From the NCBI RefSeq assembly GCF_010993745.1, contig NZ_WOTN01000002.1, positions 992,001 to 1,056,000 on the forward strand: a stretch of DNA of 64,000 nucleotides, given 5' to 3'. The translations under genes and the position numbers were made by a program. Source of the stretch: Fodinicola acaciae (GTDB lineage Bacteria > Actinomycetota > Actinomycetes > Mycobacteriales > HKI-0501). Of the stretch, positions 37,054 to 64,000 are shown piece after piece; position 1 is the stretch's first letter, and each line of letters begins with the position of its first letter. The notes below the pieces were generated by a model, which was not told the origin of the DNA, ran no database searches, and saw only the letters and a program-made list of their open reading frames with translations.

Positions 37054-37126
37054 GGGGCTGTGGCGCAGCTGGTAGCGCACCACACTGGCAGTGTGGGGGT
37101 CAGGGGTTCGAGTCCCCTCAGCTCCA
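37054..37126 (+). tRNA. tRNA-Ala (anticodon GGC)
   Basis: A 73-base cloverleaf. The acceptor stem pairs 37054-37060 with 37119-37125 and includes the alanine identity pair G3-U70. The anticodon stem CCACA/TGTGG carries loop CTGGCAG (anticodon GGC). The T-arm contains GGTTCGAGTCC. CCA is not encoded. Sequence to the right is accessory, so the 3' end is a candidate integration site, although I did not find a second copy in the window. Confidence 0.95.
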
Positions 37127-37133
37127 CAGAGGT

Positions 37134-37178
37134 AGGACCTTTGACAAGCGGCATTCCCGCAGGTCAGAGGTCCTTTTC
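37134..37178 (+). terminator. Terminator after tRNA-Ala
   Basis: AGGACCT (37134-37140) pairs with AGGTCCT (37168-37174), with a second inner pairing possible, followed by TTTT. It lies eight bases past the tRNA. Confidence 0.65.
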
Positions 37179-37252
37179 TGCTTCTAAACGATCTTGCTAA
37201 CTGTCCACAGTAGACACTTAGCAATGCTTTGTTCATATTTTTGGGAGGATTC

Positions 37253-37345
37253 ATGGGAGCGAAAGGTGTGGGGGTCACCCTCTCGCGCAGTGATCTACAT
37301 CACGCCGCGTCGCTGATCTCTCGCAACCTCCGTCAACTGCTCTGA
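37253..37345 (+). CDS. Possible 30-residue small protein with a strong ribosome-binding site
   Basis: The open frame starts at an ATG preceded by GGGAGGA and a four-base spacer, one of the best Shine-Dalgarno sequences in the window. It encodes MGAKGVGVTLSRSDLHHAAS, then ten more residues ending RQLL. The product would be basic, with one amphipathic helix. An AT-rich stretch (37220-37241) upstream could hold its promoter. It resembles no family I know. The support is the start site and position, not homology. Confidence 0.4.
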   Translation: MGAKGVGVTLSRSDLHHAASLISRNLRQLL

Positions 37346-43831: not shown

Positions 43832-44159
43832 CAGGTGAGGAGGTTGATCGTTGATCGTGAAGAACCTGGCAAAGGGCAACTGTCCCTGCGGGGTCGCAGC
43901 ATGCCGCAGCGACTGCAAGTCCGCGGTCGGTACGCTCCACAGCATTGGGCGCGCGGCGATTTCCTCCGTGTGCATGTCCGGTCGCGTGGACCTGGCAGCT
44001 TCCACCGAGGGCGGCTCACGCTCGACCTTTTCTCAGGGTGCACGATGAGGGTCACGGTGAAGACGGCGTACTCGTCGAGTCAGGTGAAACCGATCGCATT
44101 GACGCGACCGGCTGGGCCTGATGCTGTATCCACTTGCTGGTCCGGGGCTGGGGTCTGAG
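43832..44159. other. Gap between the helicase and the AbiJ-like gene
   Basis: A region of about 330 bases. The only candidate gene is the low-confidence small frame at 43851-44048. The remainder shows no hairpin with a T-run and no recognisable protein. It presumably carries the promoter or leader of the AbiJ-like gene. Confidence 0.4.
43851..44048 (+). CDS. Possible small Cys-containing protein downstream of the helicase
   Basis: A 65-codon frame starting with TTG, seven bases after GAGGAGG. The product begins MIVKNLAKGNCPCGVAAC and contains five cysteines, with CPCG and CRSDC near the N-terminus. It starts 19 bases after the helicase stop, as expected of a co-transcribed accessory gene. 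Codon use is not decisive, another frame is open over the same stretch, and no family is recognised. Confidence 0.3.
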   Translation: MIVKNLAKGNCPCGVAACRSDCKSAVGTLHSIGRAAISSVCMSGRVDLAASTEGGSRSTFSQGAR

Positions 44160-47560: not shown

Positions 47561-47774
47561 GATCGATCCGGGCGCCACCGAGTACCTCTGTGGCGCTGCA
47601 GATGTCGCGTACAGCAGTGTCGAGGCAGGCGGCGGAACGGCAGCCATCGTATGTGGAATCGCCGGCGTCGACGCTCGGGCTGGTTTGATGCGATTGGAGC
47701 TAGTCAGTTTGGTTCCGTTCCCTGAACGGTCGCGCGGACTCGATGTCGTCTTGTGGGTGCGAGTAGTGCGTGTT

Positions 47775-49217: not shown

Positions 49218-50462
49218 ATGGGCTGGGCTGAAAAACGAGGTCCAGGAAGCTATCGTGCCCGGTACACCAAGCCCGACGGCACACTTGGCTCCAAGAGCGG
49301 TTTCCGCACTCGTGGCGCGGCGCTGGACTACGCCAACGGCAGGGACAACCCCGCCGCAGGGGACGACGACCGTGACGACACCGCTGATCGGTTGCTGGTC
49401 CGGGTTTCCCGTCCTGCCAACAACAGGGAGTCGGTGATCCTCACGTTGGCCGAGTGGGCTCCGACCTGGCTGGACTCGATGGACGTGGCGATTCGGACCG
49501 AGGAAGGCTACCGGACCCGCCTGAAATGCCACATCCTGCCGGACTGGGGCGATTACCCGCTTGACGCGATCACCAACAGCGGCGTACGGGCCTGGGCAAA
49601 GAAACTCCGTGTCGCCGGGTACTCCCCGGTCACCGTCTCTGGGCTGACCAAAGCTCTTCGGTTGATGCTCAGCGACGCCGTCGACGAAGGCATTTTGAAA
49701 GCAAACCCAGTCCAACTGCGCCGCCGCGGTCGCCGGGAGCACGTATCCGTGACCGAACGCGTCTGGGCTACACCCGAGCAGGCGATGCGGTTCGCCGTCA
49801 ACGCTGCGATGTTGGACAGCCCGACCGCCGGCGTGTTGGCGCTGACGGCTGCCTGGACTGGCGCGCGTTGGGGCGAACTCGCCGGGCTACAGCGAATGAA
49901 CGTCCATCTCGACGAGGACGGCAGTGGTCGCATCGTGATCGATCCCAAGATCGGTTCGCTCCATGAAACCGACTCCGGCAGGCTCATGCTCGGCCCGCCC
50001 AAGACCGCCAAATCGGCCCGTACGATCGCCTTGCCACCCACGCTGGCGAAGGTGCTTCGCAACCACCTTGATATGTGCCGAGGCAGTTTCGTTTTCACTG
50101 GCCGTGACGGCGGGTTGTTGCGGCGCAGCAACGTCTCACGCCGGGTCACTCGTCCAGCAGTTGACGGCACCCTGCATCTCACGCGTCCCCGTATCAAGAT
50201 CGAGGGCGCCTGCCCTGGGCTGACCATGCATGGTTTCCGACATGGTCACAAGACATGGATGATCGCCGACGGCATACCCGAGGCCGCGCAAGGCCTGCGT
50301 CTCGGTCACGAACAAGCCGACCAGATCCGCGAGGTCTATTCACACGTCGAAGAAGCCATCGAACAAAAGCTGCTCGACTGCCTAGAAAACCGGTGGAGCA
50401 GGGCCATCGCGGCTCTTGGCGAGAATATCAATCTCACTCATAGATGGCTCAATGCCGCCTGA
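49218..50462 (+). CDS. Tyrosine recombinase/integrase (module 2)
   Basis: A 414-residue integrase. An N-terminal AP2-like/arm-binding segment (GSYRARYTKPDGTLGSKSGF) leads to the SAM-like domain (about 75-170) and the catalytic domain, with Arg in GARWGELAGL (about 217), HxxR in HGFRHGHKTW (about 338), GH at LRLGHE and the nucleophile Tyr in REVYSHV (about 374). All catalytic residues are present. It points away from integrase 1. Its last 19 bases overlap the longest possible reading of the next gene. Confidence 0.9.
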   Translation: MGWAEKRGPGSYRARYTKPDGTLGSKSGFRTRGAALDYANGRDNPAAGDDDRDDTADRLLVRVSRPANNRESVILTLAEWAPTWLDSMDVAIRTEEGYRTRLKCHILPDWGDYPLDAITNSGVRAWAKKLRVAGYSPVTVSGLTKALRLMLSDAVDEGILKANPVQLRRRGRREHVSVTERVWATPEQAMRFAVNAAMLDSPTAGVLALTAAWTGARWGELAGLQRMNVHLDEDGSGRIVIDPKIGSLHETDSGRLMLGPPKTAKSARTIALPPTLAKVLRNHLDMCRGSFVFTGRDGGLLRRSNVSRRVTRPAVDGTLHLTRPRIKIEGACPGLTMHGFRHGHKTWMIADGIPEAAQGLRLGHEQADQIREVYSHVEEAIEQKLLDCLENRWSRAIAALGENINLTHRWLNAA

Positions 50463-50578
50463 ATATCTGCTCGCGCCGCTCCGGTGCTTCGACGTTTCGG
50501 AATCAGCCAAAGCTTTGTCCTGCACGGAGCGGTGTCCTCGAGGCCATGGTGAAACATGACGGCTCTAGGCTGGGGCGT

Positions 50579-52870
50579 ATGGCGATGACGGCGCGGGAAC
50601 GACTGGCGCGAGAGCTCGGTGGTTCCGAACAGGCTGGGTCGTTCAGCGCACAAATGCTGGCACCTGCTCATCTTCTGCAGCTTCAGGTGTCGGGTGTCGG
50701 GCCGGTTAGTCTTCCGATCCGAGCGGCTCTGGCGAAGAAGCTGATCGCGGCGGCGCGACCGGCGATGTTCGGGCGGGGAGAGGAGACGCTGACTGACACC
50801 AGTGTCCGCGATACGTGGGAGCTCACCCCCGATCAGGTCGCGCTTGGCGGGTCTGATTGGGCGGCGTTGATGGCTCGTGCGTTGGAGCATTTTCGTGATG
50901 AGCTTGGCCTTCCTTTGACGACTCGCTTGCGGGTCGAGCTGCACTCGATGTTGGTTTACGGCAAAGGGCAGTTCTTTCTTCCCCACCAGGATTCGGAAAA
51001 AGACGATGCCATGGTGGGCACGTTGGTGGTGTCGCTGCCATCTGTCCATACCGGCGGTGAACTGGTCATCGACCACGCGGGGGAGCGCAAGACGTTTCGC
51101 GCGTCGAAGGAGGAGTTGACCTTCGTCGTGTTCTACTGTGACTGTCGTCATCAGGTGATGCCTGTCCGGTCCGGGTATCGGGTGACGCTGACATTTAACC
51201 TTCTCGCTGATGCCAGGGTGCCGGCCGCGGAGGTTGGCCCGATCGCCGAGGTGACGCATTGCCTGACCGAGCACTTCAGCGGGCCGGCGACCCCTTCGTA
51301 CGGAGGCCGCGACCTTGCCCCACCGAACCGGTTGGTCGTACTGCTCGACCATGAGTACACCCAGCGAGGGTTGAACTGGCGCTGCCTCAAGGGCGCCGAC
51401 GTGGGACGTGCTGCTCTGCTGCGAGCGGCAGCGGAGCAGGCCGGGTGCGACGCGGTGCTGGCGCTGGCCGAGGTCAAGGAGACCTGGGACGCCCTGCCCG
51501 TCGGCGACGATCCATGGGATGGGTCATGGGATGGGTCATGGGATGGTGACTACGACGAGACCGAGCCAGGCGAGGGCGCCGATGACTTCGAGCTCAATGA
51601 GCTGATCGACGACGAGATCACCCTCACGTGGTGGACCGCCCCGGACGGCGCCGGAGGCGAGCCGATCTCGCTGTACGTCCCCGACCACGAGGCGTGTGCT
51701 GCCACCTCAAGCGCGCATCTGGAGCCGTATCAGTCGGAGTACGAGGGTTATATGGGCAACTACGGCAACACGCTGGATCGGTGGTACCGGCGGGCCGCGA
51801 TTGTCCTGTGGCCGCGGGAACGGGCCTTCGCGGCGCGCGCCGAGGCCAGCTCGCTGTGGGCTCTGCAGCAGCTCCGCGACCGCATCGAAGCCGGAGATCT
51901 GGAGGGTGCGAATGCGGCCGCTGAGTCGCTCGCGCCGTTCTGGACAAGGACGGCAGCGCAGGCCGGCCTACTCGGCCTTTGTCTGCAGGTAGCGGCGGGC
52001 TTGAGCGTTGCCGAGACGGCATCAATGCTGCTGGAGCCGTTCCACATTGAGATGATCACGCACGAGCAGGTGGCCGGACTGGTAGCGGTGGCCCGCCGAT
52101 ACGGCGATGAGTGGACGCGGAACGTCGTCGATGGATGGTTCGGGACGCACCGCTACTACGGAGCCGACCGTGGCGAGTGGGTCAACAAAAAGTTGGCGGA
52201 GCTGTGCGCGACGTTGCGTACGGCCGGCAGTCCGGGCGTGGCGCGGCTGCTGGGTGCCGGTGCGTGGCGCTGGATGGATCGCGAGCTGCGGCGCTGGACG
52301 ACCACCGCGGGAAGCAAGATCCGGCAGCCGCAGCTGGAGATGCTGAGCACGCCGTTTGCGCGACTGGTGGAGGCGGCGGACGACAAGCTACGCGACGAGA
52401 TCATCGGCGCGCTGCGCGAGTACGACGACAGCGTCCTGGAGTGCACGTTTCCAGCGCTGCGGCTGGCCGGCGCGTCGCCAGCTGTCGGGCTCGACGCGGT
52501 TGCGCGGGACTGCGCGGGTCGGCTCGGCAAGATTGTCGCGCGGCCGCTACGTGAAGACGACGATTGGTCGATCGAATGGACCGGTTGTGGGTGTGAGCTC
52601 TGCGCCACGCTGGCGACGTTCCTCGGCTCTCGTACGCGCCAGACGCTGGAGTGGCCGCTGGTCACAGCTGGACGCCGGCATGTGCATTCTCAGATCGACG
52701 CGGCAGAGCTGCCGGTGCGGCACCAAACCCGGCGGCAGGGGCGACCGTACACGTTGGTTTTGGTGAAAACCGACGAACTGTTCAGTCGGGCCGTGGAGGC
52801 GCGGCATAAGGCGGTAATGGACCTGGCGTGGCTGGCCTCGACCTGGGACAACGCCACGCTGCGGACGTAA
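50579..52870 (+). CDS. Large protein with N-terminal 2OG-Fe(II) oxygenase domain
   Basis: A 763-residue protein; the start is uncertain (ATG 50546, 50579 or 50585). Residues about 115-210 form a prolyl-4-hydroxylase-like double-stranded beta helix: the Fe ligands HxD in LPHQDSEKDD (about 135), the distal His in CDCRHQVMPV (about 190) and the 2OG-binding Arg in SGYRVTLTF. An acidic low-complexity segment with a WDGS repeat (about 312-323) precedes a long helical C-terminal region of unknown function with a CxC-type pair (GCGCELC). The substrate could be a protein or nucleic acid. Similar proteins are scattered among accessory genes; no role in defence is established. Confidence 0.75.
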   Translation: MAMTARERLARELGGSEQAGSFSAQMLAPAHLLQLQVSGVGPVSLPIRAALAKKLIAAARPAMFGRGEETLTDTSVRDTWELTPDQVALGGSDWAALMARALEHFRDELGLPLTTRLRVELHSMLVYGKGQFFLPHQDSEKDDAMVGTLVVSLPSVHTGGELVIDHAGERKTFRASKEELTFVVFYCDCRHQVMPVRSGYRVTLTFNLLADARVPAAEVGPIAEVTHCLTEHFSGPATPSYGGRDLAPPNRLVVLLDHEYTQRGLNWRCLKGADVGRAALLRAAAEQAGCDAVLALAEVKETWDALPVGDDPWDGSWDGSWDGDYDETEPGEGADDFELNELIDDEITLTWWTAPDGAGGEPISLYVPDHEACAATSSAHLEPYQSEYEGYMGNYGNTLDRWYRRAAIVLWPRERAFAARAEASSLWALQQLRDRIEAGDLEGANAAAESLAPFWTRTAAQAGLLGLCLQVAAGLSVAETASMLLEPFHIEMITHEQVAGLVAVARRYGDEWTRNVVDGWFGTHRYYGADRGEWVNKKLAELCATLRTAGSPGVARLLGAGAWRWMDRELRRWTTTAGSKIRQPQLEMLSTPFARLVEAADDKLRDEIIGALREYDDSVLECTFPALRLAGASPAVGLDAVARDCAGRLGKIVARPLREDDDWSIEWTGCGCELCATLATFLGSRTRQTLEWPLVTAGRRHVHSQIDAAELPVRHQTRRQGRPYTLVLVKTDELFSRAVEARHKAVMDLAWLASTWDNATLRT
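51513..51547 (+). repeat. In-frame 12-base tandem repeat (WDGS repeat)
   Basis: Three near-identical copies of CATGGGATGGGT (51513-51524, 51525-51536 and a partial copy 51537-51547), encoding repeated WDGS. The identity at DNA level implies recent expansion, and copy number may vary by slippage without shifting frame. Confidence 0.85.
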
Positions 52871-52904: not shown

Positions 52905-53342
52905 TCAGGTGACGAGCGGGTTTCGTACGGCAACGGCGGTGCTGAAGCGCCCGAAGTCGCGGTCGGCTGACCACAGTTCGCGTACGCCATGCGCGGCACA
53001 GAGCGCGGCGATCCTCGCGTCGTGAACCATCGGGCCCACGACCTTGCCGTTGGCGAGCAGGGCCTTCAGCTGTTTCCAGTACCCCGCGGGCTCGGCCAGC
53101 AGCGTCAGTGTCGGTGCCGCCAGCCAGGCGTCGAGTTGGTCGATGGCCTGGTCCCGCGTGCTGGGTGGGTCGTAGATCTTCGGATGGGTGGCGATGGCGA
53201 AGAACTCGTGCACGCACGGCCATGGGATGGCCCAGCCGGATCGTCCTTCGGCGAGGCTTTTGACCAGATCGGCCGCGGCGGCGTGGAAGTCGGAGTCGCA
53301 GCGATGCGCGTAGACGAGGATGTTGGTGTCGACGGCGATCAT
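52905..53342 (-). CDS. vapC: VapC-type PIN-domain toxin
   Basis: A 145-residue PIN-domain RNase. The acidic catalytic residues are in MIAVDTNILVYAHR (Asp5), VHEFFAIATH (Glu), VHDARIAALC (Asp) and SADRDFGRF (Asp). The ATG at 53342 overlaps the antitoxin stop by four bases (ATGA), the normal vapBC layout. It would cleave tRNA or rRNA when the antitoxin is degraded, acting in stabilisation of the island or in growth arrest. Confidence 0.88.
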   Translation of the reverse strand: MIAVDTNILVYAHRCDSDFHAAAADLVKSLAEGRSGWAIPWPCVHEFFAIATHPKIYDPPSTRDQAIDQLDAWLAAPTLTLLAEPAGYWKQLKALLANGKVVGPMVHDARIAALCAAHGVRELWSADRDFGRFSTAVAVRNPLVT

Positions 53343-53581
53343 GCCGGCTGCTGGTAGATCTCGTCGCGGATTTGCTCCCAATGCGCGCCGCGGAACTCTG
53401 GCTGCAGGCCGCGGCCATCCACACTCGCATCCGTCAAGACGAATGGCGGCTCGCCGGTGCGCTGCCTGATCACGGTGCGCAGTCCAGCCTCAATCAGCGC
53501 CTTCAGTGTCGTGTGCTGCCGTTGCGCGAGCTCCTGCGCCTCCCGTATCAGCTCATCCGGCAGGTTCACGGTCGTCTTCAT
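53339..53581 (-). CDS. vapB: VapB-type ribbon-helix-helix antitoxin
   Basis: An 80-residue antitoxin. The RHH domain starts MKTTVNLPDELIREAQELAQ (strand then helix) and continues TTLKALIEAGLRTVIRQR. The C-terminal part (GLQPEFRGAHWEQIRDEIYQ) would wrap around VapC. I use the ATG at 53581; an in-frame ATG at 53593 is possible. The inverted repeat just upstream is the likely operator for VapB or VapBC. Confidence 0.85.
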   Translation of the reverse strand: MKTTVNLPDELIREAQELAQRQHTTLKALIEAGLRTVIRQRTGEPPFVLTDASVDGRGLQPEFRGAHWEQIRDEIYQQPA

Positions 53582-53597
53582 ATGGCGGACCATACCA

Positions 53598-53625
53598 TGA
53601 CAGCCGTACGCCCATACAGCTGTCA
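53598..53625. promoter_or_regulatory. Inverted repeat upstream of vapB, likely autoregulatory operator
   Basis: TGACAGC (53598-53604) and GCTGTCA (53619-53625) form a perfect 7-base dyad with a 14-base spacer, 17 bases beyond the vapB start. Spaced dyads over the promoter are typical VapBC operators. Confidence 0.6.
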
Positions 53626-54004
53626 GATGCCTCGACGTTAGCGTCGATTTCTTCGAGTACGCCTTGGTCTTGTTTGAAATCGACGAGCTTTCAGCCGCGC
53701 TGTGGGCGCGCGGCGCAGGCCGATGCCGCCCCTGCGTGGCTGACCTCGACGTGAGGCGGCACCACGCTCCGAACCTAGCCATGGCCAGGCCTGATGGCGC
53801 GCCCTCGCCTCTGTTGTTCCGTCCAGCGGCGTGAACGGCCCGGTCATGAACGGCAGCAGATCTGCCGCATGGTGGACTGGCGCGTCATGGTCGACACATC
53901 AAGTGCCGGGAAGCAAGGTCACGTGAGCCGCACGCACGCTAAGTTATGAGCGAAGAGTGACCGGGCGAGTTGAATGAGTGTTGGAACGAGGAGCGACAAG
54001 GCGC
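53626..54004. other. Region between vapBC and the kinase gene
   Basis: About 380 bases without a gene I can support. It contains a perfect 10-base inverted repeat (53642-53651 with 53676-53685, 24-base loop) of unknown role. It also has the promoter for the kinase-DISARM genes, for which no clear -35/-10 pair stands out. Confidence 0.45.
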
Positions 54005-55177
54005 ATGAGCGGTCCACCCGCGCAAATAGGCCGTTACCTGGTGGAACGTCAACTGGGTTCTGGCGGTATGGGCGAGGTCTACCTGGCGTACTCACCAGCC
54101 GGCGATCCGGTCGCTGTCAAGTTGATTCGGACTGATCGATTGGACCCTGTCACGCGGGCACGATTCGAGAAGGAGGCTCAGATCGCTCGCACCATCATCG
54201 GTACGAACCGGGTAGCCAAGTTTCTCGACGCGGACCCGTACGCCGATCGTCCGTGGCTGGCAATGGAATACATCGCCGGCGACACGCTGCTTGCTCATGT
54301 CGACGCACATGGTCCACTGTCAGCACCTATGATCGCGAGCTTGGGAGCCCTGCTCTCCGAAGGACTGGCCGCGGTCCACGATGCCAAGCTGTTGCACCGG
54401 GACATCAAGCCGCAGAACGTAATCATGGGTGAGTACGGCCCGATTCTGATCGATTTCGGTCTCGGAGCGTTCCTGGATGCGGGCAAGGAGTCAATTGCCA
54501 GCAGCGGCATGATCATCGGAACCGTACGTTGCATGGCTCCTGAACAGGCAACTGGCAATTCGAGCGACGTCACCACTGCCGCAGACGTGTATGGCTTGGG
54601 TTCCGTCTTGCTCTACGCGGCGACCGGACACTACCCGTACGAAGGTCTGCGTTGGGAGGCCATCGTCGCCCAGGTGCGGGACCCAACCGAGCTCCCCGAC
54701 CTGCATGGGCTACCAGACCCGCTGCTGCCGATCGTTTCTTCGATGCTTGCGTACGACCCGGATAGTCGGCCTCACCTGGCTGCAGTCACCAGCGAATGCG
54801 CGAGGTTGCTCACGGAGTTCGGGATGTCGCCGGCAGATGCCCGCTACGCCTTGCTTGACCGGACGACCAAGGGGCCGGGAGCCGAGACCCGGAACTCCCC
54901 ATCGGCAGCGCTGCCAGAACGACTGGGCGTACCCGCGATTGGCCTCGCCGCCGCGGTGAGCATCGACAGCCCACTCGATCGTCCGGTCCAAGCATACGAG
55001 GATGCCGACGACGCGACATCGGTCGACGCCCTCATCGAAAAAGGAGCGCCGAGAGACGTGGTACGGGGCGAACCGGAGCCGTTCGCGGCCTCGGACTCGC
55101 GCCGCCGCAGGCAACCGGCCTCGGAACGTGTCGCAGAGGAACTGCGGAAGAAGTACGACGTACAGCCTGGCTTGTAG
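54005..55177 (+). CDS. Hanks-type Ser/Thr protein kinase preceding the DISARM genes
   Basis: A 390-residue kinase. The start ATG at 54005 (MSGPPAQIGRYLVERQ) is preferred to a TTG 27 bases upstream. The glycine loop GSGGMGEVYLA is at about 14-24, the ATP-binding Lys is in VAVKLI, the catalytic loop is HRDIKPQNV (about 133), DFGLG is the magnesium loop, and APEQ ends the activation segment. The C-terminal 120 residues are charged and disordered, with no membrane helix or extracellular sensor, so this is a soluble kinase. It ends 78 bases before drmD on the same strand, suggesting a function tied to DISARM, perhaps as a regulator or activation switch. Confidence 0.85.
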   Translation: MSGPPAQIGRYLVERQLGSGGMGEVYLAYSPAGDPVAVKLIRTDRLDPVTRARFEKEAQIARTIIGTNRVAKFLDADPYADRPWLAMEYIAGDTLLAHVDAHGPLSAPMIASLGALLSEGLAAVHDAKLLHRDIKPQNVIMGEYGPILIDFGLGAFLDAGKESIASSGMIIGTVRCMAPEQATGNSSDVTTAADVYGLGSVLLYAATGHYPYEGLRWEAIVAQVRDPTELPDLHGLPDPLLPIVSSMLAYDPDSRPHLAAVTSECARLLTEFGMSPADARYALLDRTTKGPGAETRNSPSAALPERLGVPAIGLAAAVSIDSPLDRPVQAYEDADDATSVDALIEKGAPRDVVRGEPEPFAASDSRRRRQPASERVAEELRKKYDVQPGL

Positions 55178-55255
55178 GAAAAGTCCGATCTCCAGGTCCG
55201 GCGGTCAGGTGAACAGGAGAAGCCGTGCGTTGCGGCTGGTGAGGAGCACAGCGGG

Positions 55256-58200
55256 GTGACGGGGCATACGGAGACTCACATCGAGCGAGACGTTGCCGAG
55301 CATAGGGGCGGGGACATGCATGCGGTCGGCGGAGCTCCGCCGTGTGCGCCGGGTGCTCAAGTTCGAATCCGGGACGAGCAGTGGTTCGTCAAGAAGATCA
55401 GCCAGGTTCGACCCGGCAGTTGGATGCTCGAAGTTACGGGCGTCTCCGCTTTCGTTCGAGGAATTGACTCCACCTTCTACGACGAGCTCGACGAAATTGA
55501 GGTGTTGGATCCGGAGAAGACCCGGCTGGTCGGCGACAACTCACCGAACCACCGCCGTGCCCGTTTGTATCTCGAGGCGATGATCCGCAAGACCGCTCTG
55601 CCGCAGACCGAGCACGGGTTGGCACTCGCAGGTAGCTTTCTGATGGACCAACAGACCCACCAGCTACGTCCGGCAGAGCTCGCTCTATCAATGAAGAACC
55701 CGCAGCCGCGCATCCTCATCGCAGACGTCGTCGGCCTCGGTAAGACCTTGGAAATAGGCCTGCTGCTCGCCGAGCTCATCCGAAGGGGACGCGGGGAGCG
55801 GATTCTGGTCGTCACACCGGCGCACGTACTTGAGCAATTCCAGCGAGAACTGTGGACCCGCTTCGCCATTCCGTTGGTACGGTTGGACTCTACCGGCATT
55901 CAGCGTGTCCAACAGGACATTCCCGCCGGCCGCAACCCCTTCGCCTATTTCAAGCGGGCCATCATTTCGGTAGATACGCTCAAGAGTGACGTTTACGCGC
56001 ACCATCTGGACAGCACCGACTGGGATGCCGTTGTTATCGACGAGTCGCACAACCTGGTCAACCGCGGCACCCGCAACAACGCGCTCGCTCGGCTACTCGC
56101 ACGACGCACGGATGCGCTGATCCTGGCCTCCGCGACCCCACACAACGGCAACGCCGAATCCTTCGCGGAGCTGGTCAAGCTGCTCGACGAAGCCGCGATA
56201 GCTGATCCTTCAAACTATGCTGTAGAAAACCTTGAGCACCTCTATATCCGTCGTACAAAGGCCTCCCCGGAGGTCCGGGACTCCCTCAAGGGCGCGTGGG
56301 CAGACCGAGGCCCATCTCTGCCAATTGAAGCCAAAGCGACAGCCAAAGAGCTGGCCGTCTTCGAGGAGCTCGCGTCCAGCTGGATTCCCCGCGACCAGGA
56401 CGAACGGTCCGTCAGTGGCCATCAACTCTTTCCGTACACGCTCTTCAAGTCCTTCCTCTCTTCTCACAAGGCGATGCAGGAGACGATTGCGACACGCCTT
56501 CGCACCATAGATAGGCAGGCGGCCGGCAAGGAGTCGCCCCGTAAAGCCGAGCAAGAGGCTCTGCTGAGCCTGCAGAGCCTGGTAAGCGCCATTGATGACA
56601 CGGACTCTGCGAAATTGAAGGAACTTCTGGTTTTACTGCGCCAGATCGGAGTCGGACCCAAATCCAGTACCCGAGTGGTGGTATTTTCCGAACGCATTCC
56701 GACCCTGAAATGGCTTGCGGAAGTGGTGCCCGCAGAACTGGGGTTCCGCAAAGGCGGCAGCGAGGACAGGAACAAGCCTTGGCTGGCGTACGGCGGTACC
56801 GTCCAGGTGATGCATGGTGAAGCCACCTCTGACGATGAGCAGAAGAACATCGTCGAGAAGTTCGGCCTGCGAGATGACCCTGTCCGCGTCCTCTTCACCG
56901 GCGATGTCGCGTCCGAGGGTGTGAACCTGCACCAGCAGTGCCATCACCTTGTCCATTACGACCTGCCGTGGTCACTCATCAGGATCGAGCAACGCAACGG
57001 TCGTATCGATCGCTACGGGCAACGTGAAGCACCGGAGTTTCGAGCGCTAATCCTCTGTAGCGACGTCGAATGGCGCGATGACGAAACCGGGCAGGCGCGT
57101 ACGTTGGACGACCGCTTGGTTGGAGCCAAGTTGTTGCGACGCGAGGAGGAAGCCAACCAGATTGAAGGGTCGGTGGAGACCGTCACCGGCCTGTACCGGG
57201 CGGCTGAGGAGGAGAACCGGCTGACCAGGGACATACTCGCGGGTCGCACCGTCGAGCAGTCCATCAAGCAGTCACGCCAGGAAGGCGACGGCTTCCTCGC
57301 CAACCTGATGGGAACAGTTGGCACGGTGTCCGCGCGAACCGAGGTGGCAACCGCGTCCGTCCCCACCCTCTTCGAGTCGAAGGCCGCCTATTTCGATGAA
57401 GCCTTGCGGCAGATTTGTCCCACGAGCCCGGAGAACGATCTTTCCCTCCGCCGCGACGAGAACGGTACGATCGCCTTCGACCCGCCCGCTGACCTGCAGT
57501 ACCGCCTGAAGGCACTTCCTAAATCGTACTTGGATGAGCAGGGCATTCTGACCAACCGGACGCGTCCTGGTCGGCTTCGAATCACCTTCTCCAAGGATTT
57601 GGCGGAGAAGCGCCTCAAGGCCGCGTTGGACTCCTCCAAAACCCAATGGCCGAACGTCAGCTACGTGTCCGACGTTCATCCAGTGCTGGACTGGGTGACT
57701 GACAAGGCCTTGGCGTCCCTCCGGTACGACGAGGCATTCGTCTTGGCGTACGCGCCAGATCTGGAACGAGTCGGCGAGCTCGATAGGTCGCTTGCGTCGT
57801 ACCTCAACTACCCGATCTTTCTTATTCAGGGCAGCTACAGTAACGCGCTTGGCAGACCCACTGTGGTCGAATGGATGGCGGTCCTCGGACTCTCCGACAA
57901 ACCCTGTGTGGTCGCAATGGATGGACGTTTCCTGGATATCTGCGGGGTAGGACCGAAGATGCCCGGCCGAACGGCAGCGGCACAGGATCTCGAGGAACTG
58001 CGGAAGCTCGTGCCACGCGCAATCTACGAGGCGCGGCGGCACCTGCAGAACCGTAGGGGCGAATACGACGAACGCACGAGGCGGATTCTCGAGCCGTATA
58101 GCACCCGAGTGCGGAAATGGCATCAGGATGCCCTGATCGCACCAGGCCGTCCGGATACAAAGGCTGTGAACCAGACGGCAAGTCGTCGTCAGGATCTGGT

Positions 58201-58288
58201 CAACTCACTGGAAACATCGGGAGCACCGATGCTACGTCTGCTGGCCGTTCTCCAGCCTCAGTTCACCGTCGGAGATAGTGTCCAATGA
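55256..58288 (+). CDS. drmD: DISARM class 1 SNF2-family helicase DrmD
   Basis: A 1010-residue SNF2-type ATPase. Motif I reads DVVGLGKTLEIGLLLAEL (about 155-172), motif II VVIDESHNL (about 260), motif III LILASATPHNGN and motif VI QRNGRIDRYGQRE (about 577-589). GAGGAG lies nine bases before the GTG start. The following gene is a very large adenine methyltransferase overlapping by four bases, then a DrmA-type helicase. That order is the class 1 DISARM layout, in which DrmD is a helicase partner of the methylase. Length and motifs match DrmD. Confidence 0.85.
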   Translation: MTGHTETHIERDVAEHRGGDMHAVGGAPPCAPGAQVRIRDEQWFVKKISQVRPGSWMLEVTGVSAFVRGIDSTFYDELDEIEVLDPEKTRLVGDNSPNHRRARLYLEAMIRKTALPQTEHGLALAGSFLMDQQTHQLRPAELALSMKNPQPRILIADVVGLGKTLEIGLLLAELIRRGRGERILVVTPAHVLEQFQRELWTRFAIPLVRLDSTGIQRVQQDIPAGRNPFAYFKRAIISVDTLKSDVYAHHLDSTDWDAVVIDESHNLVNRGTRNNALARLLARRTDALILASATPHNGNAESFAELVKLLDEAAIADPSNYAVENLEHLYIRRTKASPEVRDSLKGAWADRGPSLPIEAKATAKELAVFEELASSWIPRDQDERSVSGHQLFPYTLFKSFLSSHKAMQETIATRLRTIDRQAAGKESPRKAEQEALLSLQSLVSAIDDTDSAKLKELLVLLRQIGVGPKSSTRVVVFSERIPTLKWLAEVVPAELGFRKGGSEDRNKPWLAYGGTVQVMHGEATSDDEQKNIVEKFGLRDDPVRVLFTGDVASEGVNLHQQCHHLVHYDLPWSLIRIEQRNGRIDRYGQREAPEFRALILCSDVEWRDDETGQARTLDDRLVGAKLLRREEEANQIEGSVETVTGLYRAAEEENRLTRDILAGRTVEQSIKQSRQEGDGFLANLMGTVGTVSARTEVATASVPTLFESKAAYFDEALRQICPTSPENDLSLRRDENGTIAFDPPADLQYRLKALPKSYLDEQGILTNRTRPGRLRITFSKDLAEKRLKAALDSSKTQWPNVSYVSDVHPVLDWVTDKALASLRYDEAFVLAYAPDLERVGELDRSLASYLNYPIFLIQGSYSNALGRPTVVEWMAVLGLSDKPCVVAMDGRFLDICGVGPKMPGRTAAAQDLEELRKLVPRAIYEARRHLQNRRGEYDERTRRILEPYSTRVRKWHQDALIAPGRPDTKAVNQTASRRQDLVNSLETSGAPMLRLLAVLQPQFTVGDSVQ

Positions 58289-61200
58289 CTGCTGACTTCG
58301 ATTCGTTCACCAACCGCGGTGAGTACATTGCCGCACACTATTTCGCCGACCAGCTTGACACGGATCTGAAGAGGGGCATCTTCGACAAGTGGGCGGTTCG
58401 TGAAGGCGACAAGCACGACCCGCGAAGAACTCCTCGACAGCTACTCCGTGACCTGCGGGGCGACTACCTTTCGGGAAAGTTCCGTAGCTATTTTGCCGAA
58501 TGTGCCGATTTCGACATATCGGAGGACGCTGCGAACAGCCAGAACAGGCTAAGGCTACGGACGTACAACAACCCTGATTGGGTCGGGCGTCTCGGTGAAT
58601 GGCATGGGAAGGTACTAACCGCTCTCGGCTTCGAAGCTGAGTCGACCGAGCCACTCACACTCTCCGTCCGGCACGCTGGACGGGACAACGCGGTGACTGT
58701 CGCTTGGTCCGGCGATGGAATCGTGGCCATCGAATGTGGGTGGGCCGCGGTCACCGACACGACACTGGACGCCGACGGCTCAGGACGGCTGCTCCACCCG
58801 CTGAGGATCAGTGCCAGCGAGGCGTACGAGACTGGGCCAGCGCTGGCTACGTGGCTCTTCCAGAGCGAGATTCACGATCTCGGCGACGTGCCGCCGCGCT
58901 TCATTCTGCTGCTGTGCGGTGGAGTTATCGTGCTCGCAGACCGCCAGGCGTGGTCCGAGGGCCGCTTCCTGGCGGCGAACCTCGATGCGGCGCTGGAGCG
59001 CAACGATCGCCGGCAGCTCGGTGAGCTAGCCAGCATTGCGGCTCTCTTCAGCCGCGAGATGTTGGCTCCCAGCGATGACGGCAAAGGGTCGCCAATCGAC
59101 GCCATCCTCAAGGCTTCCCGTGACAATGCCGTCGGTGTCTCCGGAGACCTTCGCGACGGGCTCCAGCGTTCGGTGGAGATCATCGCCAACGAGGTGTTAG
59201 CTCGGCTCGACGACGCCAAAATCTCGCCGCGGCAGATCGAGGATCCTAAGCTAGCCGTTGAAAAGGAGCTCACGCGGGAATGCCTGCGGTATCTCTATCG
59301 CATCCTATTCCTTTTGTATGCAGAAGCGCGGCCGGAGCTAGGTATCCTGCCGGCGGATGACGGCACCTATGAAGCCGGCTATTCGGTCGCTCGGCTGCGG
59401 GAACTGGTTGAGCGTGACGAACAGCTTGTCGAAGAGGAAGCCAGGAATGGCTTCCACCTGTTCGCTTCGCTGGAAGTCCTTTTCGACAAGGTCAACAACG
59501 GCCACCGTCCCTACGGCACGGAAGCTGATGACGTACGTCTCGAAGATGACGAGGAGACCCGAAAGCTCAAGGAGAAACTTCGCAGCGAGAACCGCGGCCT
59601 GCGATTTGAACCGCTCCGGAGCGAGCTCTTCGAGCCCAAGGCCATTCGGCTCATCGGTCGCGAGGTCGTCGACCCCCGGTCCGAGGAGAACGGCAACGTC
59701 CGCCACCTAGATCTGCGACTACGCAACTCCGCCCTGCACGAGGTCTTGCGCCTGCTGACCATGAAGAAGGGGGCCAGGTCCGGTGACCGCGGCGGCTTCA
59801 TCTCTTATCGCAACCTAGGGATCAACCAACTCGGTGCTGTCTATGAAGGCCTAATGTCGTACACCGGCATCATCGCCACAGAAGAGTTGTGCGAGGTGGC
59901 CAAAGGCGGCGATCCCGAGAAAGGCTCCTGGCTGATCCCTGCCCACCGGCAGACGGCCTATCCGGAGAACACCGTCGTGATGTACGACGAGGTGGACATG
60001 CGTAAGGGTCTACGTGGTCCGAAGCGGTATAAACCCGGCTCATTCGTCTATCGACTGTCCGGCCGCGACAGGGAGACCTCTGCCTCGTACTACACGCCAG
60101 AGTCGCTGACCAAGGTCACGGTCGAGCTAGCACTTAAGCATAGGCTCGATCAGGAACACGACAGTGATGGCAATGTCATCAAGACGCGCGCATCGGAGCT
60201 TCTCAACTACAAGATCTGCGAGCCAGCCCTCGGTTCGGGTGCCTTCCTCAACGAAGCCATCAACCAAGTCGCCGAGGAGTATCTTCGCCGTCGCGAAGGC
60301 GAGCTTGGCACCTCGATTCCGACGGCCGAGGCCTTGACTGAGAAACAGCGAGTCAAGGCGTACATCGCCCTGCACAACGCCTACGGCGTGGACCTGAACG
60401 AGACGGGCGTTGAGCTGGCCGAGGTCTCGCTGTGGCTCAACACCATGCACCCCGGGATGCGGGCACCATGGTTCGGTCTGCATTTGCGCCGTGGCAACTC
60501 GCTCATCGGTGCTCGCCGAGCGGTTTACGCGGGCAAGGACGTCTTTTCAAAGGCCAAGGCGTGGCAGAAGGCCAGTGACCCTCTTGGGCCGACGCCCCTG
60601 CCGTTCCTATCCGACGGCAACGAACAGCTGCTGCCGACGGACGCGGTCCACCAGTTCCTCCTGCCAACACCGGGCTGGGCCGCCGTCGCACGATCGACCG
60701 AGGCCAAGAAACTCGCACCTGACGAAACGCGGACGCTTGGGGCGTGGAAGAAGGGCCTTCTCCATCGCCCTACGACGGCCCAATATGCGCGGCTGCGGGC
60801 AGCTGCCAAACGGATAGAGTTCCTCTGGTCGCTCGTGGTCAAGCGCATGGAGCTCTCGGAAGCAGCGATCTCCCGCAAGATCGATGTGTGGGGTGCGGAC
60901 CCGACCGATCCCGAGTACTCATTCCTGCGACAGCCAGATCAGCCTGAGACGAAGGAAAAGGTCTTCGAAGATCTTTTCGACGCCGTGGACACCCCGTACT
61001 GGCGGCTGAAGACTGTCATGGACGCGTGGTGCGCCCTGTGGTTCTGGCCAGCTGACAAAGCCCCACTGCTCGACGGCTCCGACACCGTGTATGACAGCTC
61101 TCTGATGCCGACGGGAGCGGACAGCCTGAGCGCCCTACTCGACAACGCACCCGTGCTCGACTCCGACGAACTTGGCAACCCACACGAATTCCCTTCGGCC

Positions 61201-63687
61201 AACGCCACAATCCCGCCGACGCAAGAGTCGCTGTTCGGCTCTGACCTCGACGTCGCGCCGCGCAATAATGAGTCGTCCGTGGGCCGCCCACAGCGCCAAA
61301 AGAACCCGCCAAAGTCGAAGCGCCGGCTGCTTCGGCAACACATTCCACTGAAAGACCTCGATGACTGGCTGGACTTCCTAGAGGCAATGGTTGGAACCAG
61401 CGAGGTCGACGCGGATCAGCTCATCGAGCACTTCAACAGCCTGGACGCCCTCAAAGACTACGAGGATGCGCTCCCGAAATTCATGGGCATGGACACCATG
61501 GATCCAGAGCAACGCTTCCCCTGGCTGCACACGGTCCGCAACATCGCTGCGGAACAGGGCTTCTTGCATTGGGAGCTCGAATTCGCCCTCATCTTCGCTC
61601 GCACCGGCGGCTTCGACCTCCAAGTCGGCAACCCGCCCTGGGTCCGACCCCGCTGGAACGAGTCCGAGGTCTTTGCTGAATACGAACCCTGGTTCGAACT
61701 ACAAGAGAAGGCATCCGTCAGGGAAAAGGAGAGCAGACGTCGCGAACTCCTGCAGAACCCCACGGCGTTTGGGGGCGCACTCCAAGAACTAACAACAACA
61801 AGTGCGCACGTCGGATTGTTTGGATCGCCGCAGGTTTACCCTCTTTTAGTTGGAACCCAGCCCGACCTCTATCGGGCATTCATGTGCCAGACTTGGACAC
61901 ACAGTGCGCCTTCAGGAACTGGTGGTCTTCTGCACTCTGATTCGCATTTTTATGGCGATAAGGAGGGTGCGCTGCGAGAAGCTGCGTATCAAAGGCTTCG
62001 TATTCATGGAGACTTCGTCAACTCAGGTCAGCGTTTCTTCCCTGAACCTGTTGGTCACGCAACCCATTTCGGAGTGCACATATATGGCGCTTCGAAAGAT
62101 GTCGGGTTTGACCATCTTTCTTGGTTGGTCTCTGCAGATGCACTGCGATTCTCTGGAAGTCATGATGGCTCAGGCGAGGTGCCGGGCGTTCGATATAGAA
62201 ATGCAGAGTTTGATGAACGACCGCATCGGACCAGAGTCATCAGGGTTGACGATCGAGTGCTCGGCGTTTGGCAACGGCTATTGGGTGAGAGTGATCAACC
62301 TGTCACGCAAGCTCGCCTTCTATTTCCCGTGAGCACGGCTGAAGCCTCTGCAATCGCGGCACTGGCTGACTATCCTTTGCGTCTAGCAAACCATGAGATG
62401 CAGATCTCTGCTGGTTATCATGAAAGTGGTTCAAAACGAGTCAATATTATTGACTATAATCGCCGCGACGAATTGACGGGCCGCGAATATCAGCCGAACC
62501 ATTGGAAAGACGTGATACTTAAAGGTCCACAGCTAAGCGTTGCTACCCCAGTCTTTAAGCGCCATGATGCCAACAGCAACGATACTTATGGCGCTGACTT
62601 AGTCAGTCTGTCGGTGAATTTTGTGCCAGACACTGCGTACGTCCGAGTGGCGAGCGAGACCCGTTCATATTTGGCGGCGCAGGATCGGTGGATAAATTTC
62701 AAGATTCTCAATCAGCTACGAGTCGACTCTAATGTGGTGGCACGAGCTCGCTCCACCATTGCCGAAGTCGAGCAGATTCCCGAAGAAGATGTCGCCCCGG
62801 AGAAGGTGGACGAGGCCCTGGTCTTACGCTCGCGTAGACGGTACACGACATTTACACGCCTTGCGTGGCGTAGGATGATCTCGCCGAACAGTGAGCGGGC
62901 TCTGTATGCGGCACTTTTTCCTCCCGGGCCTGCACATATCCACGCAATCCATAGTATGGCCATGCCTGACAACCTGCAGACAGCTATTGTGGCAGGATTC
63001 TGGGCGTCGTTACCTCTCGACTATTTCCTCCGGACGACTGGACGTGGCGATCTCCAGGTTAGCGGGGCCAAGGCGATGCCTGCCCCGGGCCTAGTAGATC
63101 ATCCTCTGGCATCCAGTCTGCTCATTCGCACACTACGTCTGAACTGCCTAACGCAAGCCTACTCTAAGTTGTGGGCCGAATTGTACGACCCGGGGTGGTT
63201 GAGATTAGAGGGATGGGTATGCGATTGGCCTGGGCTCGGCGCACTTCAGGATGTAGCCGCGGAGTGGCAGCCTGAAACACCGCTGCGGTCTGAGCGTGCA
63301 AGACGGTCGGCGCTCGTAGAGATTGATGCATTGGTGGCCGTATGGGTTGGTATGAGTGCTGACGCCCTCATCGCGGCGTACCGTGGCCGGTTTCCGGTGC
63401 TACAGAAGTACGAGGCAGCGACCTGGTTCGACGCTGATGGTTGGAAGATTGCGAGCTACGCACGGACATTCGGTCAACGCCAAACAAAGGCAAGTTGGGT
63501 TCAGTTCGAGGCCTATCGCGAGGATCCGGAGAATGTTCCACCGCCAGATGGATACACCGCGCCGTTCTATAAGGCGGATCGGGAGAAGGAGATGCGGGAG
63601 GCGCACGCTGTTTTTAAGGCTCGGTTGGATGCGGCGGTAGAGCGTGGCGAGTGGGATCCGGTCAAGCAGGAGGTGTCGAACGCATGA
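58285..63687 (+). CDS. drmMI: DISARM class 1 N6-adenine methyltransferase DrmMI
   Basis: A 1800-residue protein of the Eco57I/BREX PglX-like gamma-class methylases. Motif I is EPALGSGAFLNEAI (about 645-658), the linked acidic motif YGVDLNETGVELAEVSLWL (about 700), and motif IV is GNPPWVRPRW (about 1116), with an unusually long insert between. The N-terminal 600 residues include a helical domain with nuclease-like LLLCGGVIVLAD segments but no clear D/ExK. The C-terminal region (about 1180-1700) is the likely target-recognition part. Base composition falls sharply there, for example 20 G or C out of 60 at 62401-62460, suggesting exchange of specificity domains. It overlaps drmD and drmA by four bases each. 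Confidence 0.85.
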   Translation: MTADFDSFTNRGEYIAAHYFADQLDTDLKRGIFDKWAVREGDKHDPRRTPRQLLRDLRGDYLSGKFRSYFAECADFDISEDAANSQNRLRLRTYNNPDWVGRLGEWHGKVLTALGFEAESTEPLTLSVRHAGRDNAVTVAWSGDGIVAIECGWAAVTDTTLDADGSGRLLHPLRISASEAYETGPALATWLFQSEIHDLGDVPPRFILLLCGGVIVLADRQAWSEGRFLAANLDAALERNDRRQLGELASIAALFSREMLAPSDDGKGSPIDAILKASRDNAVGVSGDLRDGLQRSVEIIANEVLARLDDAKISPRQIEDPKLAVEKELTRECLRYLYRILFLLYAEARPELGILPADDGTYEAGYSVARLRELVERDEQLVEEEARNGFHLFASLEVLFDKVNNGHRPYGTEADDVRLEDDEETRKLKEKLRSENRGLRFEPLRSELFEPKAIRLIGREVVDPRSEENGNVRHLDLRLRNSALHEVLRLLTMKKGARSGDRGGFISYRNLGINQLGAVYEGLMSYTGIIATEELCEVAKGGDPEKGSWLIPAHRQTAYPENTVVMYDEVDMRKGLRGPKRYKPGSFVYRLSGRDRETSASYYTPESLTKVTVELALKHRLDQEHDSDGNVIKTRASELLNYKICEPALGSGAFLNEAINQVAEEYLRRREGELGTSIPTAEALTEKQRVKAYIALHNAYGVDLNETGVELAEVSLWLNTMHPGMRAPWFGLHLRRGNSLIGARRAVYAGKDVFSKAKAWQKASDPLGPTPLPFLSDGNEQLLPTDAVHQFLLPTPGWAAVARSTEAKKLAPDETRTLGAWKKGLLHRPTTAQYARLRAAAKRIEFLWSLVVKRMELSEAAISRKIDVWGADPTDPEYSFLRQPDQPETKEKVFEDLFDAVDTPYWRLKTVMDAWCALWFWPADKAPLLDGSDTVYDSSLMPTGADSLSALLDNAPVLDSDELGNPHEFPSANATIPPTQESLFGSDLDVAPRNNESSVGRPQRQKNPPKSKRRLLRQHIPLKDLDDWLDFLEAMVGTSEVDADQLIEHFNSLDALKDYEDALPKFMGMDTMDPEQRFPWLHTVRNIAAEQGFLHWELEFALIFARTGGFDLQVGNPPWVRPRWNESEVFAEYEPWFELQEKASVREKESRRRELLQNPTAFGGALQELTTTSAHVGLFGSPQVYPLLVGTQPDLYRAFMCQTWTHSAPSGTGGLLHSDSHFYGDKEGALREAAYQRLRIHGDFVNSGQRFFPEPVGHATHFGVHIYGASKDVGFDHLSWLVSADALRFSGSHDGSGEVPGVRYRNAEFDERPHRTRVIRVDDRVLGVWQRLLGESDQPVTQARLLFPVSTAEASAIAALADYPLRLANHEMQISAGYHESGSKRVNIIDYNRRDELTGREYQPNHWKDVILKGPQLSVATPVFKRHDANSNDTYGADLVSLSVNFVPDTAYVRVASETRSYLAAQDRWINFKILNQLRVDSNVVARARSTIAEVEQIPEEDVAPEKVDEALVLRSRRRYTTFTRLAWRRMISPNSERALYAALFPPGPAHIHAIHSMAMPDNLQTAIVAGFWASLPLDYFLRTTGRGDLQVSGAKAMPAPGLVDHPLASSLLIRTLRLNCLTQAYSKLWAELYDPGWLRLEGWVCDWPGLGALQDVAAEWQPETPLRSERARRSALVEIDALVAVWVGMSADALIAAYRGRFPVLQKYEAATWFDADGWKIASYARTFGQRQTKASWVQFEAYREDPENVPPPDGYTAPFYKADREKEMREAHAVFKARLDAAVERGEWDPVKQEVSNA

Positions 63688-64000
63688 GGCCGACGCTGGA
63701 AGCGCAGGGACTCAAGGAAAGCCTCCTGCAATACCTGTCAACCACGTACGCACTGACCGACGAAGGCGCGCGCGAGTCGCTACACCGGTTCCTGGGGGAC
63801 GAGACCGCTGGCATGTTTCGCGGTCCCTTCCTCCGTATCCGCGCGCCGTTTGTTACCGCCGACGCCAGCTGGCGTGACAGCCTGGACTGGCGGCCAGACA
63901 ACTGGACCCCGTACGCGCACCAAGCCGCCGCCTTTGCCCGCCTGACTTCGGCACACGACCACACTCCACAACCGACACTCGTCACCACCGGTACGGGATC
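63684..64000 (+). CDS. drmA: DISARM helicase DrmA, 5' end (runs off the window)
   Basis: Only the first 105 codons are in the window, with no stop. The ATG overlaps the drmMI stop (ATGA). The protein begins MRPTLEAQGLKESLLQYLST, then FRGPFLRIRAPF, WTPYAHQAAAFARLTS (a Q-motif-like segment) and QPTLVTTGTG, which is the start of Walker A. These blocks are characteristic of DrmA, the DISARM DEAD-like helicase. It fixes the order drmD-drmMI-drmA, so drmB (DUF1998) and drmC (PLD) are predicted just beyond the right edge. Confidence 0.85.
   Translation, partial: MRPTLEAQGLKESLLQYLSTTYALTDEGARESLHRFLGDETAGMFRGPFLRIRAPFVTADASWRDSLDWRPDNWTPYAHQAAAFARLTSAHDHTPQPTLVTTGTG

What the first reader, a model, noticed from the sequence alone, without database searches (positions are those of the whole stretch)
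54005..64000. Class 1 DISARM locus led by a soluble Ser/Thr kinase
drmD, drmMI and drmA are coupled by four-base overlaps. A soluble Hanks-type kinase with a disordered tail precedes them by 78 bases on the same strand. Kinases are not core DISARM parts as I know them. Kinases do control other defence systems (for example Stk2-type and Pgl/BREX-associated PglW), so this one may gate DISARM by phosphorylation.
Basis: partly seen in the sequence, partly recalled or inferred. Interest (0 to 1): 0.6.

Follow-up and report, generated by a model that had tools for sequence, protein, structure and literature searches.

The report
Phage-defence operon with its own kinase
The locus is not a DISARM system but a related phage-defence operon called ARMADA Type II, and in one large branch of actinomycetes this operon carries its own protein kinase with a distinctive tail, which suggests that phosphorylation controls the defence.

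Summary
The genes, overlaps and kinase are real, but the name is wrong. Extending past the window shows armC (YprA/DruE-like helicase with the MZB/DUF1998 part fused in one 2244-aa protein) and armD (RelE/ParE-like N-terminus plus UvrD helicase), joined by four-base overlaps; there is no drmB or drmC. This is the gene order of ARMADA Type II (PMC12458937), a recently described relative of DISARM and Druantia. The kinase is not a passer-by. Of 117 ArmA loci examined, 57 have a co-directional kinase directly 5' of armA, 54 do not and 6 are undecidable. In an ArmA tree all 52 deduplicated kinase-bearing loci fall in one clade with no kinase-less locus inside. Kinase and ArmA trees agree (34 of 49 splits shared). 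Unbiased kinase searches return armA neighbours first: the top 15 of 30 loci fetched in one sample, 22 of 29 in another. All 52 kinases keep the catalytic residues and end in a conserved helix after a variable linker, a motif seen nowhere else in the loci held. Best reading: an actinomycete ARMADA II variant whose dedicated, tethered kinase signals to the Arm proteins, as PglW does in Pgl. The phosphorylation step and its target are inferred, not shown.

The parts
54005..55177 (+). Hanks-type Ser/Thr kinase (390 aa), dedicated fifth gene of the operon; kinase domain about residues 8-275, low-confidence linker about 318-366, conserved C-terminal helix 372-385
   Evidence: Pfam Pkinase 8e-35; catalytic residues invariant in 52 of 52; AF2 model mean pLDDT 83.9; a GTG 27 bases earlier (53978) is the longest start, ATG 54005 preferred because a GAGGAG lies just upstream
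55115..55174 (+). C-terminal conserved tail of the kinase (pattern R-V-A-x-x-L-R-x-x-Y-A-...-L/F at the carboxyl end)
   Evidence: tail alignment and HMM; R381 invariant and Y384 at least 90% in 52 kinases; seen in 22 of 22 armA-linked kinases and 0 of 6 others of the class sample
55178..55255 (+). 78-base gap between kinase stop (TAG) and armA start (GTG), with a GAGGAG before the start
55256..58288 (+). armA: BrxHII/RapA-like SNF2 helicase (1010 aa); Walker A GLGKT, DESH
   Evidence: Pfam SNF2-rel_dom and Helicase_C; PADLOC DrmD 8e-77; motifs
58285..63687 (+). armB: PglX/Eco57I-like DNA methyltransferase (1800 aa) with NPPW at residue 1116
   Evidence: Pfam Eco57I; PADLOC type IIG 4.5e-265 and DrmMI 1.4e-53; motif
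63684..64000 (+). armC, first 317 bases; the gene continues to window-equivalent 70418 (2244 aa). armD follows at 70415-72703, outside the window

Best explanation
The locus is an ARMADA Type II anti-phage operon (kinase-armA-armB-armC-armD) of an actinomycete-wide subclade in which a soluble, catalytically intact Hanks kinase is a dedicated fifth component. Shown here: identity and order of the genes, a single origin of the kinase association in the ArmA tree, co-inheritance, intact catalytic residues, and a conserved C-terminal helix on a variable tether. Inferred: the tail docks the kinase onto the Arm machinery (ArmA/ArmB, or the kinase itself), and the kinase acts as a PglW-like signal transducer that phosphorylates an Arm protein, most likely the ArmA/ArmB pair encoded next to it, so that restriction is licensed during infection and held back otherwise.
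For: Gene order, fused MZB/DUF1998 and RelE/UvrD match ARMADA II as described in PMC12458937. 57 of 117 ArmA loci have the kinase directly 5' and co-directional; one clade, one change on the tree against a shuffled mean of about 37. Mantel r 0.90 over 52 loci and 0.92 over 29 thinned loci; 34 of 49 splits shared, 0.14 by shuffling. Top 15 of 30 fetched kinase hits in 298 genomes lie 5' of armA, the next 15 do not; 22 of 29 fetched non-window hits in 394 genomes do, 6 do not, 1 ends at its contig. 3 of 3 plasmid matches that cover the whole kinase lie beside ArmA, one shown annotated as kinase-armA-B-C-D. Catalytic K39, E57, D133, N138, D150 invariant in 52 of 52. Precedent: PglW kinase activity is needed for Pgl, a system with the same kind of methyltransferase (PMC4365076, passages read).
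Against: ARMADA II works without a kinase in E. coli (PMC12458937), and 54 of 117 loci here lack it, so the kinase is not needed by the core mechanism. No conserved phosphorylation site was found: the longer ArmB linker of kinase-bearing loci is not conserved and ArmA has no clade-specific insert. The tail helix is not confidently placed on ArmA in the read-through model (pLDDT 47-59, only two alignment rows hold the tail), while it is about 90 in the kinase-only model. In the kinase tree the armA-linked kinases are not one clean clade. Co-inheritance shows linkage, not function. No experiment was possible.
Confidence: 0.55

Rival explanations
1. The kinase is the effector: on sensing infection it phosphorylates host proteins and stops growth, as I recall for Stk2 and the single-gene PD-T4-6 kinase, with the Arm genes acting separately as direct restriction.
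For: The closest PADLOC models are PD-T4-6 kinases (2.2e-53).
Against: Those scores come largely from the common kinase fold; the general kinase models of NCBIfam score in the same range. The kinase was never lost in the 52-row clade and is rarely found alone. ARMADA in E. coli acts by a direct, non-abortive route (PMC12458937).
Confidence: 0.2
2. The kinase restrains a toxic part of the operon, most likely the RelE/ParE-like domain of ArmD or the methyltransferase ArmB, by phosphorylating it (kinase as antitoxin).
For: ArmD carries a RelE/ParE-like N-terminus (A5 profile against PDB 2khe E 0.0012); PglX is toxic when not controlled in Pgl (PMC4365076).
Against: The same ArmD architecture occurs without the kinase (Klebsiella plasmid; its ArmD N-terminus aligns only weakly). 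armC and armD can lie far from the kinase while armA and armB do not.
Confidence: 0.12
3. The kinase is a neighbour with no role, fixed by descent in one lineage of operons.
For: All kinase-bearing loci are one ArmA clade, so the association may be a single event.
Against: The clade spans Streptomycetaceae, Micromonosporaceae, Pseudonocardiaceae, Frankiaceae, Kineosporiaceae, Streptosporangiaceae, Nocardiaceae, Nocardiopsidaceae and Glycomycetaceae with an intact active site and a conserved tail; cargo has entered between armB and armC but the kinase stays next to armA.
Confidence: 0.06
4. Class 1 DISARM led by a kinase.
For: ArmA and ArmB resemble DrmD and DrmMI (PADLOC 8e-77 and 1.4e-53).
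Against: No drmB or drmC; the helicase carries MZB itself and is closest to DruE (313.7 bits against 53 for DrmA); ArmB's best model is type IIG rather than DrmMI; DrmD below cut-off.
Confidence: 0.02

Closest known systems
ARMADA Type II (Bell et al., PMC12458937; abstract, Results and legends read)
   Same: BrxHII-like helicase, PglX-like methyltransferase, YprA-like helicase with fused MZB/DUF1998, RelE-UvrD fusion, in that strict order
   Different: A dedicated kinase opens the operon; the word kinase does not occur in the main text of that paper; large cargo can sit between armB and armC
DISARM Class 1
   Same: DrmD-like and DrmMI-like first two genes, a YprA-family helicase third
   Different: No drmB, no drmC; helicase of the DruE branch
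Pgl of Streptomyces coelicolor (PglW/PglX; PMC4365076, passages read)
   Same: A Hanks kinase works with a PglX-type methyltransferase in an actinomycete
   Different: PglW is far larger and this kinase scores 48 of the 990 bits needed; no PglY or PglZ seen among the genes examined here
MADS kinase MAD6
   Same: Kinase within a methylation-linked defence system
   Different: 112 of 460 bits needed; partners differ as I recall. The MADS paper was not found in the library
CapK/CapS (PMC13373217, passages read)
   Same: A kinase encoded upstream of immune operons
   Different: CapK is a GHKL kinase acting on a repressor encoded beside it; here the fold is Hanks-type and the next gene is armA

Membership tests
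ARMADA Type II | ArmA: BrxHII/RapA-like SNF2 helicase with Walker A and B | tested here: met
ARMADA Type II | ArmB: PglX-like methyltransferase with NPPW | tested here: met
ARMADA Type II | ArmC: YprA-like helicase of the ARMADA/Druantia branch with DUF1998/MZB in the same protein | tested here: met
   MZB 1.9e-11; best PADLOC model DruE3 7.7e-94. No helicase tree was built
ARMADA Type II | ArmC: C-terminal Vsr-type nuclease | tested here: inconclusive
   no Pfam nuclease hit at E 0.001; not tested by structure
ARMADA Type II | ArmD: UvrD helicase with RelE-like N-terminus | tested here: met
   UvrD 1.4e-23; N-terminal profile matches toxin-like 2khe at 0.0012; Pfam ParE below its cut-off
ARMADA Type II | Strict order armA-armB-armC-armD | tested here: met
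   also 9 of 9 fetched armC flanks of relatives are followed by armD
ARMADA Type II | Protects against phages | not testable with these tools
   needs bench work
DISARM Class 1 | drmB (separate DUF1998 protein) and drmC (PLD nuclease) | tested here: not met
   next genes are armD, a PIN_8 protein and others
DISARM Class 1 | DrmD above NCBI's curated cut-off | tested here: not met
   285.6 of 610 bits
DISARM Class 1 | Helicase is DrmA | tested here: not met
   DrmA 53.4 bits against DruE3 313.7
Pgl/BREX PglW kinase | PglW above curated cut-off | tested here: not met
   48.1 of 990 bits
MADS MAD6 kinase | MAD6 above curated cut-off | tested here: not met
   112.3 of 460 bits
PASTA (PknB/Stk1) kinases | Transmembrane helix and PASTA repeats, Stk1 model cut-off | tested here: not met
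   161.6 of 450 bits; no PASTA in Pfam; no membrane helix by hydropathy

The most novel reading that the evidence does not exclude
Actinomycete ARMADA is a five-part, phosphorylation-controlled defence machine: a dedicated kinase, tethered by a C-terminal docking helix, senses infection or helicase engagement and switches the ArmA/ArmB module (and through it ArmC/ArmD), making this the first member of the DISARM/ARMADA/Druantia group with a built-in kinase.
Probability: 0.45. Interest if true: 0.72.

Novelty: new variant of a known kind. Interest (0 to 1): 0.57.

Why it matters
ARMADA was described only recently and the papers read here do not say what triggers it. A subclade that never lost its own kinase in the sample gives a direct handle on how these multi-helicase systems are switched on: kinase-dead and tail-less mutants are simple to make in Streptomyces laboratory strains. 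It also links the YprA-helicase systems to Pgl, the older kinase-plus-PglX system of the same bacteria. It corrects a likely annotation error, since model libraries without ARMADA call the first two genes DISARM or type IIG restriction.

Tried and rejected
DISARM reading: rejected on drmB/drmC, DrmA and DrmD tests. Kinase-armA-armB as a stand-alone triad without armC: considered when many loci showed no armC within about 4.6 kb of armB, rejected because armC is present in 16 of 16 genomes searched (14 such genomes and 2 controls). Conserved phospho-target in the ArmB linker, and a clamp-binding-like QxxLF motif there (motif recalled): looked for and rejected, since the linker is not conserved in kinase-bearing loci. 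Clade-specific insert in ArmA as docking site: none; a few clade-specific residues only. The positions printed are one lower than the ArmA numbering, because the script's offset was -1. Tail docking on ArmA by a read-through model: inconclusive; tail-only rows misaligned and were left out of the model's alignment. PIN_8 gene after armD as a sixth part: rejected, not found in the nine armC flanks fetched. Phage carriage: no ArmA match in 50,697 phage records and only partial kinase matches.

Limits. ArmA loci were chosen by similarity, so the split 57/54/6 is not a natural frequency. Two truncated ArmA rows and five near-identical rows were dropped before the tree. Trees are quick trees with one support measure; the kinase of L081 and a few others sit on long branches, and in the kinase tree the armA-linked kinases need 3 changes (L064/L073/L077 fall with background kinases, L157 falls inside). 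In some searches only 30 hits each were fetched and looked at; the lower hits were not. Samples overlap. Supplements of PMC12458937 could not be searched, so the kinase may be listed there. Papers searched for a kinase in DISARM/ARMADA: and passages; none that I saw describes it (most listed papers were seen as listings only).

Full report
WHAT IS THERE. The window lies at G000:C2:992001-1056000 of an 8.86 Mb genome. On the + strand a 390-aa Hanks kinase (54005-55177) is followed after 78 bases by an SNF2 helicase (55256-58288), an 1800-aa methyltransferase (58285-63687) and a third gene starting at 63684; both later junctions are ATGA overlaps. Fetching the next stretch shows the third gene is a 2244-aa helicase and that a 762-aa UvrD helicase follows, again with a four-base overlap. 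Pfam places DEAD, Helicase_C and MZB in the third protein and UvrD in the fourth. PADLOC's best models are DrmD for the first (8e-77), type IIG for the second (4.5e-265, with DrmMI at 1.4e-53), DruE3 for the third (7.7e-94) and weak NERD-UvrD and GajB models for the fourth. The fourth protein's first 120 residues, aligned with ten relatives, match a toxin-like PDB chain at E 0.0012.

NOT DISARM BUT ARMADA II. DISARM Class 1 needs drmB and drmC; neither is present. DrmD falls below NCBI's cut-off (285.6 of 610). Gene content and order equal ARMADA Type II as defined in PMC12458937 (abstract, Results and legends read): armA, armB, armC with fused DUF1998, armD with RelE-like N-terminus. A Klebsiella plasmid found with ArmA (33% identity) shows the same four genes in a row without a kinase. 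The C-terminal Vsr nuclease of ArmC was not confirmed by Pfam.

THE KINASE IS PART OF THE SYSTEM. In the first set 21 of 37 loci have a co-directional kinase 5' of armA, 3 have one on the other strand, 13 none. Over all 117 loci 57 have it, 54 lack it with at least 1.3 kb of upstream sequence seen, 6 cannot be judged; one of the six, L067, holds a truncated kinase tail at its contig edge. In a tree of 110 ArmA proteins all 52 kinase-bearing rows form one clade (SH-aLRT 99) with two unjudgeable rows and no kinase-less row, one change in all, against a shuffled mean of about 37. The clade holds nine named actinomycete families.

Kinase and ArmA co-descend: Mantel r 0.90 (52 loci), 0.94 without the long-branch L081, 0.92 for 29 thinned loci, no permutation of 2000 as high; 34 of 49 splits shared against 0.14 by shuffling. 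The kinase tree is less tidy: armA-linked kinases need three changes against the background kinases, with L064/L073/L077 and L081 outside the main group, so a replacement in an early branch is possible.

Searching for the kinase without reference to armA gives the reverse view. In 298 genomes of the order, 30 hits were fetched: the top 15 (224 bits or more) all lie directly 5' of armA and the next 15 do not. Rank 16 (G184, L157) nests within the family in the tree but has no arm gene in 18 kb. In 394 genomes of the class, of 29 fetched non-window hits 22 have armA directly downstream, 6 do not and have longer, different proteins, and 1 ends at its contig. On plasmids the only three hits covering 100% of the kinase at 57-60% identity are the three records with ArmA at about 70%; one, NZ_CP108327, is annotated kinase-helicase-hypothetical-helicase-UvrD in a row.

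ANATOMY OF THE KINASE. K39, E57, H131, R132, D133, K135, N138, D150 and G152 are invariant in 52 of 52. After the kinase domain comes a linker of varying length and low conservation, then a C-terminal segment R-V-A-x-x-L-R-x-x-Y-A ending in L or F in most. R381 is invariant. The three kinases L064, L073 and L077 have a divergent form of this tail. An HMM of the tail finds, among 29,762 open frames of the loci then held, no other convincing match except the truncated L067 kinase. In the class sample the motif is visible at the C-terminus of 22 of 22 armA-linked kinases (HMM E 0.05 or better in 18; three of the 22 are loci already used to build the HMM) and in none of the 6 unlinked ones. AlphaFold2 gives a canonical kinase fold nearest to PknB/PknA, a linker below 50 and a helix at 372-385 near 90. 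A read-through model of the tail with ArmA leaves the tail helix at 47-59, with only two rows holding a tail, so what it binds is open.

SHAPE OF THE OPERON IN RELATIVES. armC was found in all 16 genomes searched, including 14 in which it had not been seen directly after armB. In eleven genomes with both on one contig the gap between armB and armC is about 2.7 to 36 kb (by hand), filled with genes that include GmrSD, AAA_15/DUF3696, caspase-AAA_11/12 and Beta proteins. armD follows armC in 9 of 9 fetched flanks. The kinase stays next to armA throughout.

MECHANISM. Steps shown: gene identity, linkage, single origin on the ArmA tree, active-site and tail conservation. Steps inferred: tethering through the tail, phosphorylation of an Arm protein, and infection as the trigger. 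The nearest tested precedent is PglW in Pgl, whose kinase lysine is required for phage resistance and which is proposed to activate the methyltransferase PglX (PMC4365076, passages). Against an essential role in the chemistry, ARMADA II from E. coli protects without a kinase (PMC12458937). The kinase would then be a control layer added once in actinomycetes. Effector and antitoxin roles remain open.

NOVELTY. ARMADA II is known; the kinase-bearing subclade and its tail motif were not found in the held literature (searches; 'kinase' occurs 0 times in the main text of PMC12458937, and of PMC13192584; supplements not searchable). I call it a new variant of a known kind.

ISLAND. The 3' part of tRNA-Ala (37054-37127) and the following bases recur at C2:1081068 (window-equivalent 89068), 99% over 97 bases, framing a 52 kb island with two integrases, an AbiJ-type gene, this operon and a Wadjet set.

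Noticed in passing
window 37084-37260 and C2:1081068 on (window-equivalent 89068): Direct repeat of the tRNA-Ala 3' end frames a 52 kb island holding this operon, with integrase genes at 46046-47647 (-) and 49218-50462 (+).
   Followed up: partly
L122-L132 (between armB and armC of Streptomyces, Micromonospora and Nocardia loci): The armB-armC junction takes in cargo of about 3 to 36 kb in these relatives, including GmrSD, AAA_15/DUF3696, caspase-helicase and Beta-protein genes; it may be an insertion slot for further defence genes.
   Followed up: partly
L135:6422-7684 (-): In Micromonospora sp. PLK6-60 a second kinase, fused to TPR repeats, follows armD within a few bases.
   Followed up: no
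L027, L028, L034: Three ARMADA loci outside the kinase clade have a different kinase on the opposite strand 5' of armA; in the kinase tree these group with the L135 kinase.
   Followed up: no
L003:12853-14274 (+), window-equivalent 75852-77273: Protein with DUF4145 and a kinase-like C-terminal half lacking a Pfam kinase hit, next to an AAA_11/AAA_12 helicase, downstream of the operon.
   Followed up: no
L003:18649-19839 (-), L004:839-4237 (-), L004:4911-6872 (-): JetD, an SbcC-like ATPase and DUF3375: looks like a Wadjet set in the same island.
   Followed up: no
window 44121-45545 (+): AbiJ N-terminal domain protein, likely another abortive-infection gene in the island.
   Followed up: no
window 52905-53782 (-): Two overlapping small genes that look like a VapBC toxin-antitoxin pair by eye, directly upstream of the kinase on the other strand; not tested with HMMs.
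   Followed up: no
window 50444-52870 (+): 808-aa protein with a 2OG-Fe(II) oxygenase domain between an integrase and the VapBC-like pair.
   Followed up: no
L172 (G184:C2:1911000-1929000): One member of the kinase family stands alone, with no arm gene within 18 kb and no tail-motif hit; possibly a remnant.
   Followed up: partly
L120: A Pseudomonadales MAG shows armC and armD 5' of armA, an order unlike the strict one described for ARMADA II.
   Followed up: no
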